Shown here one piece after another: positions 43,206 through 64,000 of a DNA stretch of 64,000 nt. How positions within the stretch are numbered: position 1 is the stretch's first letter; each line of letters begins with the position of its first letter. This DNA comes from Chitinophagales bacterium. GTDB lineage: Bacteria > Bacteroidota > Bacteroidia > Chitinophagales > Saprospiraceae. The stretch covers positions 1 through 64,000 of the forward strand of contig JAAFJN010000004.1 of assembly GCA_013298845.1 (NCBI GenBank), given 5' to 3'. The notes below the pieces were generated by a model. It saw nothing but the letters and a program-made list of their open reading frames with translations. It made no database searches and was not told where the DNA came from. The position numbers were made by a program, and so were the translations under genes.

Positions 43206-43278
43206 GTAGAAGTCATCTAATGGCCAAGATGCGCGATTTGGGATCGTGAAAATGTTCGTTCGAGTCGAGCCTTCTGCA
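43206..43278 (+). tRNA. tRNA-Pro (TGG)
   Basis: Acceptor GTAGAAG/CTTCTGC, D stem ATCT/AGAT, anticodon arm CGCGA-TTTGGGA-TCGTG, T arm GTTCG-TTCGAGT-CGAGC all pair. CCA is not encoded. Confidence 0.88.
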
Positions 43279-43283
43279 CAAAA

Positions 43284-43355
43284 GGATATATAGCGCAATG
43301 GTAGCGCACTGGCCTGTCACGCCAGAGGTTGCGGGTTCAAGCCCCGCTGTACTTC
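43284..43355 (+). tRNA. tRNA-Asp (GTC), 3' acceptor strand interrupted
   Basis: D, anticodon (CTGGC-CTGTCAC-GCCAG) and T arms are perfect, but the acceptor GGATATA meets TGTACTT, so its outer three pairs are lost. The missing TCC follows only after an 83-bp palindromic repeat, at 43435-43437. Probably a tRNA gene broken by repeat insertion. Confidence 0.7.
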
Positions 43356-43434
43356 GACAAGGCTGGTTTTGTACAGTACAACACGGGATAATCCTCTGTC
43401 GTGGTGTACAAAACCTGGCAACGCTCAGTATCTA
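43352..43434 (-). repeat. Palindromic repeat (family B) inserted in tRNA-Asp
   Basis: Bounded by TA on both sides (43350-43351 and 43433-43434). Its arms GGTTTTGTACA and TGTACAAAACC form an 11-bp perfect inverted repeat, with CTTCGAC at one end and GCTCAGTA at the other. Read on the minus strand it matches the element at 43151-43205 plus an internal extension. Confidence 0.7.
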
Positions 43435-43526
43435 TCCGCCATAAACACAACAATTAAAACACCATGCATATAGAAACAAGTTTGCGAAAGTGATCCGGTG
43501 CATTATCCGATAACAACATAATCACC

Positions 43527-43598
43527 GGGTTCGTAGCTCAATGGTTGAGCACTCCGCTTTTAACGGAGGGGCTGTGGGTTCGAGTCCCACCGGGCCCA
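43527..43598 (+). tRNA. tRNA-Lys (TTT)
   Basis: Acceptor GGGTTCG/CGGGCCC (with G-U pairs), anticodon arm CTCCG-CTTTTAA-CGGAG, T arm GTGGG-TTCGAGT-CCCAC. The D loop is short (AATGGTT). Confidence 0.9.
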
Positions 43599-43605
43599 CT
43601 ACAAT

Positions 43606-43677
43606 AGTCTCGTCGTCCAATGGTCAGGACCGTATTCTACGAAAGTACAAATCAAGGTTCGAATCCTTGCGAGGCTA
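43606..43677 (+). tRNA. tRNA-Arg (ACG)
   Basis: Acceptor AGTCTCG/CGAGGCT, D stem GTCC/GGAC, anticodon arm GTATT-CTACGAA-AGTAC, T loop TTCGAAT. Confidence 0.9.
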
Positions 43678-43722
43678 CTTTATTCATACTTGGCGTCGTT
43701 TATGGCGATTCGAAGTGTACAT

Positions 43723-43794
43723 GGTACTTTTAGTGTATAGGTAACATTTCGCCTTGTGGCGGCGAAGAATCGGGTTCGAATCCCGGAAAGTGCC
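43723..43794 (+). tRNA. tRNA-His (GTG)
   Basis: Acceptor GTACTTT/AAAGTGC with an extra 5' G opposite C73, the identity mark of tRNA-His. Anticodon arm TCGCC-TTGTGGC-GGCGA, T arm TCGGG-TTCGAAT-CCCGG. Confidence 0.9.
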
Positions 43795-43806
43795 CCAAAA
43801 ATGCAT

Positions 43807-43878
43807 TGGTTCATAGCTCAACGGTGGAGCAACGGGCTGTTAACCCGAAGGCTACAGGTTCGAACCCTGTTGAACCAG
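43807..43878 (+). tRNA. tRNA-Asn (GTT)
   Basis: Acceptor TGGTTCA/TGAACCA is perfect; anticodon loop CTGTTAA; T arm ACAGG-TTCGAAC-CCTGT. The outermost anticodon-stem pair is A-A. Confidence 0.88.
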
Positions 43879-43899
43879 CCTAAGAAATTGATTTAAAAC

Positions 43900-43971
43900 T
43901 GCGTAGTAGTGTAATGGTGATCACGCGTGCCTGATACGCACGAAATACAGGTTCGAGTCCTGACTACGCGA
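43900..43971 (+). tRNA. tRNA-Ile (GAT)
   Basis: Acceptor TGCGTAG/CTACGCG, anticodon arm CGTGC-CTGATAC-GCACG, T loop TTCGAGT. One mismatch each in the D stem and T stem. Confidence 0.82.
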
Positions 43972-43979
43972 CAAAACAA

Positions 43980-44052
43980 GTGAAGATAGCTTAGTTGGTC
44001 TGAGCGTTCCGCTGAAGACGGAAAGGTACAGGTTCGATACCTGTTCTTCACA
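43980..44052 (+). tRNA. tRNA-Phe (GAA)
   Basis: Acceptor GTGAAGA/TCTTCAC, anticodon arm TTCCG-CTGAAGA-CGGAA, T arm ACAGG-TTCGATA-CCTGT. Confidence 0.9.
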
Positions 44053-44063
44053 CCACAATCAAT

Positions 44064-44135
44064 TGCGCGGTGGTGTAATGGTAACATTCGGCCCTCTTAA
44101 GGCCGATGCTGCGGGTTCAAGTCCCGCCTGCGCAA
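44064..44135 (+). tRNA. tRNA-Lys (CTT)
   Basis: Acceptor TGCGCGG/CTGCGCA, anticodon arm CGGCC-CTCTTAA-GGCCG, T arm GCGGG-TTCAAGT-CCCGC. It is a second lysine isoacceptor in the array. Confidence 0.88.
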
Positions 44136-44149
44136 CAATTTAAATATGG

Positions 44150-44220
44150 GCGAGTGTAGTTTAAAGGTAAAATCGCGGTCTTCCAAACCGAGGTTGGCAG
44201 TTCGAGTCTGCCCGTTCGCA
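44150..44220 (+). tRNA. tRNA-Gly (TCC)
   Basis: Acceptor GCGAGTG/CGTTCGC, anticodon loop CTTCCAA, T arm GGCAG-TTCGAGT-CTGCC. One anticodon-stem end pair is mismatched and the D arm is AT-only apart from one G. Confidence 0.82.
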
Positions 44221-60649: not shown

Positions 60650-60667
60650 ACAATATTGTCCCTTCCA

Positions 60668-60699
60668 ATTGTGAAAGTCGGAGGATATGTGTACGTTTG
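60668..60699 (+). promoter_or_regulatory. Promoter of the proline-rich protein gene
   Basis: ATTG at 60668-60671, 20 bases, then TACGTTTG at 60692-60699, a perfect -7 match 22 bases before the ATG at 60722. Confidence 0.65.
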
Positions 60700-60721
60700 C
60701 GGCATTAAAACCCACCTAAAG

Positions 60722-61507
60722 ATGGATCTGCTCAAAGCAAAAATTTACTTAGATAAAATCAACCGCGAATTCGGGCGAATGCTGAAAGACCCCGAAAATG
60801 TCCCGCGTATTGACGTGGACATTACGCTATCGCACGTTCGTGAACTGTACGATGCCTTTTTATCCGACACCCCCGAAGTAAAACCCGCTCCGGCACCCAG
60901 AAAAGCAGTTGAACCACCACCACCACCCGTGGTCGTGGCACCGCCACCGCCGCCGCCAGTAGTTGTAGCGCCACCGCCGGTGGAAGTACCGCCACCACCG
61001 CCTCCGGTGGTTGTAGCACCTCCACCACCGCCCGTGGTTGTAGCACCTCCACCACCCGTAGTGGAAGTACCGCCACCACCGCCCGTGGTTGTAGCACCGC
61101 CGCCGCCCGTAGTGGAAGCGCCGCCGCCACCCGTGGTCGTAGCACCGCCACCGCCCGTGGTAGAAGCGCCACCGGCACCGACAGCGGTAGTTTCCGCTGG
61201 TGACGCGGAAATTCTTTTTGAATACAAAGAGGCCAAAGAACTCTCCGAAAAACTATCGGATACGCCCATCAGTGATCTCAAACGCGCCATTTCGCTCAAT
61301 GACCGTCTGATGATTCAGCGGGAACTTTTTGGCAACGATAACCCATTTTTCGAAACGACCCTGAGTACCCTCAATTCGGCCTCCGGGTTCGAGGCCGCCC
61401 GCGCTTATTTGTTACAGGAGTGCATTGGTCGGTTCGACTGGCTGCACAAAAACAAGGTAGAAACCGCGAAATCGTTTATTCGCCTGGTTCGGAGACGTTA
61501 TAAATAA
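60722..61507 (+). CDS. Protein with proline-rich linker and conserved C-terminal domain, unknown function
   Basis: A 261-residue protein in three parts. Residues 1-55 are a helical N-terminal segment (MDLLKAKIYLDKINREFGRM). Residues about 64-155 are a low-complexity linker with six PPPPVVVA-type units. Residues about 165-261 are a helical domain with DLKRAISLNDRLMIQRELF and FDWLHKNKVETAKSFIRLVRRRY, of a kind I associate with uncharacterised Bacteroidota proteins. No signal peptide or span. ATG 60722 is chosen because the promoter lies inside the longer reading from 60656. It is followed four bases later by the flavin oxidoreductase gene. Function not known. Confidence 0.75.
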   Translation: MDLLKAKIYLDKINREFGRMLKDPENVPRIDVDITLSHVRELYDAFLSDTPEVKPAPAPRKAVEPPPPPVVVAPPPPPPVVVAPPPVEVPPPPPPVVVAPPPPPVVVAPPPPVVEVPPPPPVVVAPPPPVVEAPPPPVVVAPPPPVVEAPPAPTAVVSAGDAEILFEYKEAKELSEKLSDTPISDLKRAISLNDRLMIQRELFGNDNPFFETTLSTLNSASGFEAARAYLLQECIGRFDWLHKNKVETAKSFIRLVRRRYK

Positions 61508-62545: not shown

Positions 62546-63029
62546 GCCTCATTAGGTATTCCTTCGCACCGTAGGCCTCTTTGGGATTATTCTTCGGATG
62601 CGCTTTATTTTTTAACCCTTGTCACGCAGCACCGGGTTTGTAACCTCGGTTATATTGACCAGCCCCCCCTATTATTTAAACCATTGAAAAACATCGAACA
62701 ACGAAATTATTTTTGCCAAATATGTTAAATACAAAAAAAACATTGGCAAAAACGCGGACCAACAAATTATTCGCACCTAAATTTGTCATCAGGTATTCAC
62801 CCCGATATTTTTATTTTATTTTTTTATTCCCCAATAGTTCACAGTTCCCCCGGTATTCTCATTAAACGGACAACCAATTACACCAACAGATAAAAAACAA
62901 TATACGCAACCATTTTTCCCGATTACGCGCCCCCAAGTTTTGTGTGCTTCTAATTGCGTATGCCCCTTTTTTTGTCGTTTTTACATTGAGTGAATTGGAT
63001 TTTTTTAGGCAGTAAAAAACCAATAACAA
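62546..63029. other. AT-rich gap before the injection-system genes
   Basis: 484 bases without a gene. CTTGTCACGCAGC at 62618-62630 also occurs in the tandem repeats at 33028 and 33209, so this may be a weak family A fragment. 62690-62830 is very AT-rich. No perfect -7 box is seen; TACATTGA at 62982-62989 is the nearest. This is where a promoter or silencer of the following cluster would lie. Confidence 0.5.
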
Positions 63030-63647
63030 ATGCCACGTATCCAGGATACACTGATTGACGTATTACAAATTGTACGGCACAATTTGGATACCGCCATTGA
63101 CCAATTGGCACCCGCCCCCGGCGATTTTGTGGTAATCAGCAATATTGCTTTTGCCGAAAACCCCACGCTGAAAACACCCGGTGTGCAGGACAAAGTGGTC
63201 ATTACACTGGTCAAAACCGAAGAAGAATCGGCCTTAAAAAACCAGCCGGCTTACCACCGAAACCCCGTCAGTAATAGTTTAGAATATCGAAATCCGCCCA
63301 TTTTCCTGAATTTATACCTCCTGATGACCGCCAATTACGGCGATTATCTCATCGCGCTGACCCAATTATCGCGGGTAATCGGGTATTTTCAACACAAACG
63401 GGTATTCACCGATACCGATGCCGAGGTGCAACTGCCACCCGGCTCGCCCGTGGTTCATTTTGATTTTAACGTCACGTTGGTATCGCCGTCTTTTGAACAA
63501 ACCAACCACATGTGGAGCATTTTGGGGGGCAAACACCTCCCCTCGGTGCTGTACAAAATGCAGGTCGTTCAAATGGAATACGTGCCGGATACGGCCCAGG
63601 CCGCACCCATTATCGAAACCATCCAAATGCAGGAAAAATTATACTAA
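63030..63647 (+). CDS. DUF4255 (Pvc16/Afp16 N-terminal-like) contractile injection system protein
   Basis: A 205-residue protein matching the DUF4255 / Pvc16_N pattern: an N-terminal helix (IQDTLIDVLQIVRHNLDTAI), VVISNIAFAENPTLK near 34, VVITLVKTEEESALKNQPAY near 55, then PPIFLNLYLLMTANYGDYLIAL near 90 (quoted in part) and a C-terminal beta region. In phage-tail-like extracellular contractile injection systems (PVC, Afp, MACs) this family caps the inner tube and sheath at the tail end. Only five bases separate it from the next gene, so it begins an operon that runs off the window. The sheath, tube and baseplate genes are not visible here. Confidence 0.8.
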   Translation: MPRIQDTLIDVLQIVRHNLDTAIDQLAPAPGDFVVISNIAFAENPTLKTPGVQDKVVITLVKTEEESALKNQPAYHRNPVSNSLEYRNPPIFLNLYLLMTANYGDYLIALTQLSRVIGYFQHKRVFTDTDAEVQLPPGSPVVHFDFNVTLVSPSFEQTNHMWSILGGKHLPSVLYKMQVVQMEYVPDTAQAAPIIETIQMQEKLY

Positions 63648-63652
63648 ACGCC

Positions 63653-64000
63653 ATGGGATTCCGCATTCAGTACCAAAAAGTATTTGATCTCCTGGTTTGG
63701 CACGATCATTTTTTAGCCCCCGGCCCGGCCGATACCTTCACGCCGCCGCCCATGGCTGCCGATTACCAAAACTTATTGCCTTATACCTCCGCGCGTTTCT
63801 TGGAGTTTGAACCCAGCCGCGAAACGGAATTGTACCGCAACAACGGCGGACTTTTGTTCAAAAACAACCGCTATGGCTGCTTTTTAACAAAAAAATTGAG
63901 TTTTGTGGAAACCGACCCGATGGCAAAAATCACCCTGTTGGGGCGATTACGCGACCCGTTTTTTTTGGAATACACCCAATTGGGCCTCGATAATGCCCAT
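63653..64000 (+). CDS. Partial gene after DUF4255, function unknown (truncated by window edge)
   Basis: At least 116 codons, open to the last base. It begins MGFRIQYQKVFDLLVWHDHF and continues with RFLEFEPSRETELYRNNGG and LLGRLRDPFFLEYTQ. No motif recognised. Its tight spacing behind the DUF4255 gene suggests a component or accessory of the same contractile injection system. The real end is outside the window. Confidence 0.6.
   Translation, partial: MGFRIQYQKVFDLLVWHDHFLAPGPADTFTPPPMAADYQNLLPYTSARFLEFEPSRETELYRNNGGLLFKNNRYGCFLTKKLSFVETDPMAKITLLGRLRDPFFLEYTQLGLDNAH

What the first reader, a model, noticed from the sequence alone, without database searches (positions are those of the whole stretch)
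63030..64000. Left edge of a probable extracellular contractile injection system
The DUF4255/Pvc16-like gene is a marker of phage-tail-like injection machines, and the closely spaced unknown gene behind it suggests an operon running right. It is preceded by 484 bp of AT-rich non-coding DNA, a natural cluster boundary. The second gene has no family I recognise and could be a lineage-specific part.
Basis: partly seen in the sequence, partly recalled or inferred. Interest (0 to 1): 0.75.

Follow-up and report, generated by a model that had tools for sequence, protein, structure and literature searches.

The report
Complete phage-tail-like protein injection machine
The window ends two genes into a complete cluster for a phage-tail-like syringe of the type known from the marine bacterium Algoriphagus, and the far end of the cluster carries a toxin-like cargo gene followed by what may be the gene that protects the producer.

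Summary
The gene at 63030-63647 is a Pvc16/DUF4255 cap protein (E 2.2e-30). On the same contig, 18 same-strand genes (63030-88778) encode cap, sheath, tubes, hub, spike, PAAR, gp25, two large baseplate proteins, fibre, tape measure, DUF4157 cargo and AAA+ ATPase. The nearest solved systems are AlgoCIS and the Anabaena tCIS.

The more interesting part lies beyond the window. The 1547-aa cargo ends in about 300 residues without a match in five relative cargos, and an orphan 208-aa gene follows. In 10 of 14 clusters with a recognised DUF4157 gene, out of 30 examined, a cargo gene is directly followed by a 115-230 aa orphan. This fits exchangeable toxin-immunity pairs; neither toxicity nor immunity was shown. 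Novelty: new member of a known kind.

The parts
62546..63029 (.). 484-bp AT-rich non-coding gap before the cluster (37.4% GC)
   Evidence: no match in this gap to the Bacteroidetes-type promoter pattern tried (pattern recalled)
63030..63647 (+). cap (tube terminator) protein, Pvc16_N/DUF4255, Alg16A-type, 205 aa
   Evidence: Pfam PF14065 E 2.2e-30; phmmer to 7adz_0A Algo1 cap 1.4e-26, 9wt1_A 7.6e-26, 7b5i_AA All3327 6.8e-25
63653..64000 (+). cap adaptor, Alg16B/All3326 family, short form, 261 aa; the gene runs on past the window end to contig position 64438 (the 16 further genes of the cluster, to 88778, are listed in the full report)

Best explanation
The feature is the left end of a complete AlgoCIS-type contractile injection system cluster, most likely an extracellular one (eCIS). 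Shown here by sequence and model: the parts list, their order on one strand, and that the first two genes encode the cap that ends the tube and the adaptor that links cap to sheath. Inferred from the characterised AlgoCIS: the particle assembles in the cytoplasm; cap and cap adaptor hold the sheath in its extended state; tail fibres and baseplate sense a target; the sheath contracts, the adaptor is released, and the spike-tipped tube delivers the DUF4157 cargo from its lumen. Inferred with less certainty: the end of the cargo is an antibacterial toxin and the 208-aa gene behind it protects the producer.
For: Pvc16_N match. Sheath, tube, hub, spike, PAAR, gp25, tape measure, eCIS_core and AAA matches in one contiguous cluster, gaps between neighbouring genes -23 to 104 bp. 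Large baseplate proteins and fibre best match AlgoCIS and tCIS chains. Cap-adaptor identity by profile, decoy-controlled iteration, leave-out profile (52.9 bits against 8.1 for the best of the other 1017 sequences) and structure. Roles of cap adaptor, fibre, cage and cargo: passages of PMC8894135 and PMC13314943.
Against: No particle, release or target is shown. Some Pfam domains (Phage_sheath_1, Phage_GPD, LysM) are below their cut-offs, though other domains of the same proteins pass. By a single sequence the cap-adaptor similarity is weak (E 0.086 to Algo2). The upstream regulator of 7 of 12 relative clusters is absent here, so expression is unproven. Both same-genus genomes sampled lack a Pvc16 match. 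For AlgoCIS itself, none of the bacterial strains tested was killed by the particles (PMC8894135 passage).
Confidence: 0.94

Rival explanations
1. A contractile system of the same parts that stays inside or anchored to the producing cell, as the Anabaena tCIS, the Amoebophilus T6SS subtype iv or the Streptomyces cytoplasmic system do, rather than being released.
For: Fibre, Alg12-type protein and cap-adaptor profile or model match Anabaena tCIS proteins somewhat better than AlgoCIS ones.
Against: Cap and Alg11-type protein match AlgoCIS slightly better. No membrane-anchor gene was recognised among the genes annotated, but none was specifically searched for, so this is weak.
Confidence: 0.2
2. 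A prophage tail remnant or R-type tailocin rather than an eCIS.
For: Sheath, tube, gp25, spike and PAAR genes are shared with phage tails.
Against: CIS_TMP, CIS_tube, DUF5908, eCIS_core cargo, AAA+ ATPase and cap adaptor are all present. None of the six genes examined just downstream, to about 96.5 kb, was a capsid, terminase or integrase gene; upstream only the nearest gene was examined for this.
Confidence: 0.02
3. The 208-aa gene is not an immunity protein but a cargo-specific chaperone or loading factor, or an unrelated accessory gene, and the cargo tail acts on eukaryotes or is not a toxin.
For: No family, structure or experiment assigns the 208-aa protein. The own cargo tail has no significant family: PDDEXK_9 at E 0.1 is below cut-off, the fold was low-confidence (pLDDT 55.8) with no Foldseek match at E <= 0.001. 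In 4 of 14 clusters with a DUF4157 gene no such orphan follows directly, and 16 of 30 clusters showed no DUF4157 gene in the stretch read.
Against: In 10 of 14 clusters with a DUF4157 gene a cargo is directly followed by a 115-230 aa orphan. The seven that lie between cargo and ATPase show no mutual blastp match at E <= 1e-3; one weak match, E 0.003 over 53 residues, appears at a laxer limit. Relatives carry Endonuclea_NS_2 and Ntox16 tails.
Confidence: 0.4

Closest known systems
AlgoCIS of Algoriphagus machipongonensis PR1 (clade Ib eCIS; PMC8894135 and PMC13314943, passages seen)
   Same: Cap plus separate cap adaptor, one sheath protein, Alg11/Alg12-type large baseplate proteins, Alg19-type fibre, PAAR-like tip, DUF4157 cargo with a distinct C-terminal part.
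   Different: Cap adaptor here is 261 aa and its model aligns with residues 1-214 of the 284-aa Algo2; fibre is 849 aa against 1443; one cargo gene instead of two; an orphan gene follows the cargo (whether AlgoCIS has one was not checked).
tCIS of Anabaena PCC 7120 (PDB 7b5h, 7b5i)
   Same: Cap (All3327), cap adaptor (All3326), baseplate (All3315, All3317) and All3314 are among the closest solved relatives.
   Different: All3326 is 399 aa and the model aligns with its residues 1-317; tCIS is anchored to thylakoids (recalled), which cannot be judged here.
DUF4157 effectors with toxin tails, and toxin-immunity pairs, in eCIS loci (Geller et al. 2021, PMC8213781, passages seen; review PMC12961389, passages seen)
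   Same: DUF4157 towards the N-terminus, a linker of more than 1000 aa, place at the 3' side of the operon; toxin-immunity pairs in eCIS loci are already reported.
   Different: Geller et al. write that most tested antibacterial eCIS toxins have no recognisable immunity gene; here an orphan directly follows a cargo in 10 of 14 clusters with a DUF4157 gene.

Membership tests
eCIS (AlgoCIS-type) | Pvc16/DUF4255 cap protein | tested here: met
   PF14065 2.2e-30
eCIS (AlgoCIS-type) | contractile sheath and gp19-type tube genes | tested here: met
eCIS (AlgoCIS-type) | hub/spike, PAAR and gp25 baseplate genes | tested here: met
eCIS (AlgoCIS-type) | tape measure (CIS_TMP) and AAA+ ATPase | tested here: met
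eCIS (AlgoCIS-type) | DUF4157 (eCIS_core) cargo gene | tested here: met
   3.1e-31
eCIS (AlgoCIS-type) | Alg11-type baseplate with cage extension | tested here: inconclusive
   1213-aa protein aligns to 7aeb_G over residues 286-1207; the cage part itself was not modelled
eCIS (AlgoCIS-type) | assembled particle released from the cell | not testable with these tools
   needs microscopy
cap adaptor (Alg16B/All3326) | sequence profile match to solved cap adaptors | tested here: met
   leave-out control
cap adaptor (Alg16B/All3326) | fold of the N-terminal domain | tested here: met
cap adaptor (Alg16B/All3326) | C-terminal beta-barrel domain (Alg16B 214-284) | tested here: inconclusive
   the protein ends where the alignment with Algo2 ends (residue 214); 5 of 25 aligned members, the window's included, end in this region
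cap adaptor (Alg16B/All3326) | gene directly behind the cap gene | tested here: met
   28 of 29 genes behind cap genes fall in one family; the 29 include the window's own gene and one gene held twice
polymorphic toxin-immunity pair | shared leader, variable toxin tail | tested here: met
   cargo aligns with G062 to residue 1094, with G125 to 1173 and with G003 to 1251 of 1547
polymorphic toxin-immunity pair | recognisable toxin domain in the tail | tested here: inconclusive
   PDDEXK_9 E 0.1, below cut-off; low-confidence fold
polymorphic toxin-immunity pair | neighbour gene neutralises the toxin | not testable with these tools
   needs co-expression
LuxR/GerE-regulated eCIS | regulator gene directly upstream of the cap gene | tested here: not met
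   upstream neighbour is a FAD-dependent oxidoreductase; best own-genome relative of the regulator lies on another contig at 34% identity

The most novel reading that the evidence does not exclude
In this bacterial family the eCIS cargo end works as an exchange site: between tape measure and ATPase sit one or more DUF4157 leader-toxin genes, many with their own unrelated immunity gene, so these particles are antibacterial weapons that swap nuclease and other warheads together with their antidote; the window's version also uses a stripped-down cap adaptor without the C-terminal barrel.
Probability: 0.45. Interest if true: 0.5.

Novelty: new member of a known kind. Interest (0 to 1): 0.33.

Why it matters
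It confirms a complete AlgoCIS-type cluster and gives the unnamed second gene a function. No curated Pfam, NCBIfam or PHROGs model matched this cap adaptor, and of 25 aligned members only 3 hit DUF3244, and one each two other families, at E <= 0.01, so such genes are probably often annotated as hypothetical (inference). The cargo-plus-orphan layout bears on a question raised in print: how producers of antibacterial eCIS toxins survive when most lack evident immunity genes (PMC8213781, passages).

Full report
Observation. The ORF at 63030-63647 and the closely following ORF at 63653 are real. The first matches Pfam Pvc16_N (DUF4255) over nearly its whole length, E 2.2e-30. Its nearest solved relatives are the AlgoCIS cap Algo1 (1.4e-26), the cap of the post-firing AlgoCIS entry 9wt1 (7.6e-26) and the Anabaena cap All3327 (6.8e-25). 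The 484-bp gap before it is AT-rich (37.4% GC against 47.6%).

What lies to the right. The window is positions 1-64000 of a 280,746-bp contig, so contig positions continue the window's numbering. Eighteen genes on the + strand run from 63030 to 88778 with gaps of -23 to 104 bp. After the cap (63030-63647) and the second gene (63653-64438) they are: sheath 64464-66137 (Phage_sheath_1C 9.4e-14; Phage_sheath_1 1.8e-6, below cut-off); tubes 66219-66647 and 66650-67087 (Phage_T4_gp19 6.1e-40, 1.5e-42); DUF5908 protein 67091-67270 (3.1e-17); CIS_tube/LysM protein 67305-68000 (CIS_tube 1.9e-49; LysM 0.0011, just below cut-off); spike 67997-69715 (Phage_base_V 1.2e-21; Phage_GPD 1.5e-6, just below cut-off); PAAR 69720-70007 (1.3e-25); gp25 70035-70466 (2.8e-24); baseplate proteins of 1213 aa at 70571-74212 and 1223 aa at 74225-77896; tail fibre of 849 aa at 77917-80466; 127-aa orphan 80444-80827; tape measure 80874-82163 (CIS_TMP 4.1e-99); cargo of 1547 aa at 82189-86832 (eCIS_core 3.1e-31); 208-aa orphan 86834-87460; AAA+ ATPase 87450-88778 (AAA 5.4e-26). 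A class-III aminotransferase gene follows 55 bp on and was taken as lying outside.

The two baseplate proteins have no Pfam match at E <= 0.1 and only sub-threshold NCBIfam TIGR02243 matches, but match AlgoCIS and tCIS baseplate chains: 7aeb_G 9e-129 and All3317 7.3e-122 for the first, All3315 9.7e-106 and Algo12 3.9e-103 for the second. The 849-aa protein matches All3314 (1.1e-51) and the 9wt0 chain (1.7e-45). That this 9wt0 chain is the AlgoCIS fibre Alg19 is my reading of its 1443-residue length and of the text of PMC13314943. Blastp pieces with the 1362-aa fibre of G062 cover residues 1-703 of 849, so the end of the fibre is its own.

The second gene. Alone it has no Pfam, NCBIfam, PHROGs or PADLOC match and only E 0.086 to the AlgoCIS cap adaptor. 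I therefore collected the gene behind the cap gene in relatives. Of 150 genomes sampled from the family, 41 carry Pvc16_N. In the 30 loci returned there plus the G062 locus, a following gene could be read in 29 cases, which include the window's own gene and one gene held twice. An iterative search from the window's protein, in a database of 961 sequences (these 29, 323 other ORFs, 609 shuffled or reversed decoys), recruited 28 of the 29, no decoy, and one of the other ORFs, that in L008, the G126 locus which one search had already found with this protein. The missed one, L038, is an ORF open at the locus end that starts 208 bp behind its cap gene.

Mechanism. In AlgoCIS, about half of the particles without the cap adaptor lack cap, adaptor and last sheath layer, the rest are otherwise aberrant, and the lumen was empty in all observed (PMC8894135 passage); on firing the adaptor is released (PMC13314943 passages). 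I infer the same role here. Fibre binding, cage opening and iris expansion are also taken from those passages, not shown here.

Cargo end. The 1547-aa cargo has eCIS_core at 175-252 with the HExxH motif visible in the sequence (the motif is described in PMC8213781). Blastp aligns it with the G062 cargo up to residue 1094, with the G125 cargo up to 1173, and with the G003 cargo in a short piece at 1129-1251; residues 1252-1547 have no match in the five cargos compared. Tails differ between relatives: Endonuclea_NS_2 in G062, just above cut-off, Ntox16 in G003 and DUF6402 in G020; the tails read in G125, G001 and G006 matched no family above cut-off. The own tail is unassigned.

Layout before the ATPase. 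I read the stretch before the ATPase in all 30 loci returned, the window's own included; these are the best ATPase matches among 150 family genomes, one per genome. A DUF4157 gene was recognised in 14 of 30: 13 in the listing and G126. In three of the other 16 the contig begins too close to the ATPase to tell (G051, G045, G027). In 7 of 30 the ATPase is directly preceded by an orphan of 115-230 aa and this by a DUF4157 cargo (own, G062, G125, G006, G001, G020, G003). In three more (G030, G055, G146) another cargo of the array is directly followed by an orphan of 182-218 aa. So 10 of 14 clusters with a DUF4157 gene show a cargo followed at once by a small orphan; G134, G093, G139 and G126 do not. 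The seven small genes before the ATPase have no mutual blastp match at E <= 1e-3, and one weak one (G062-G125, 30% over 53 residues, E 0.003) at a laxer limit. One, in G003, matches DUF6714; one, in G125, has a pentapeptide-repeat match just below cut-off. The window cluster's 208-aa protein and the last 171 residues of its cargo are each found in 1 of 395 class genomes, their own. This is the pattern expected of toxin-immunity pairs, but function was not tested. Geller et al. [quoted passage not shown]

Regulator. In 7 of the 12 relative clusters (G062, G051, Pricia antarctica, Neolewinella litorea, and records L039, L040, L041) the gene just before the cap belongs to one family of 147-230 aa proteins by mutual blastp; ORFs of similar size in G003 and G125 did not match, and the other three clusters were not compared. 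The two members tested carry a LuxR-type GerE domain. GerE next to 25.8% of eCIS loci is reported in PMC8213781 (passage). In the window's genome this place is empty and the best relative lies on another contig at 34% identity.

Placement. The organism was not identified. The closest tube proteins in named records are from Lewinella, an unnamed Bacteroidetes bacterium, Flavobacteriaceae and Neolewinella (class Saprospiria); the record of the window's own genome may be left out of that collection. Both same-genus genomes in the sample lack a Pvc16 match, so the cluster is patchy.

Verdict. A new, complete member of a known kind. The cargo-orphan pairing is the part worth following.

Noticed in passing
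window 43206-44220 (+): A run of ten tRNA genes within about 1 kb (Rfam).
   Followed up: no
window 60656-61507 (+): ORF with a long proline-rich tract (PPPPPVVVAPPPP-like repeats) in the middle, just upstream of the FAD oxidoreductase gene; local GC rises to 67%.
   Followed up: no
contig position 80831-80864 (L002:18331-18364), beyond the window: A 15-pair hairpin between the 127-aa orphan and the tape-measure gene, the longest stem listed in the scan of 20 kb, with a T-run only on the minus strand; the number of such sites in the scan is at background.
   Followed up: no
contig position 80444-80827 (L002:17944-18327), beyond the window: 127-aa orphan with GSWVSG...SDLDIAV, which recalls a nucleotidyltransferase signature (recalled motif); no family match.
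   Followed up: partly
L099 to L102, L105, L106, L110: Several relatives hold two or three DUF4157 cargo genes in the stretch before the ATPase, some with small orphan genes between them.
   Followed up: partly
L047 2714 and 4264; L043 6755 and 8255; L039 2829 and 4351: G062, Neolewinella litorea and a Lewinella MAG have two sheath-like genes in tandem where the window's cluster has one.
   Followed up: no
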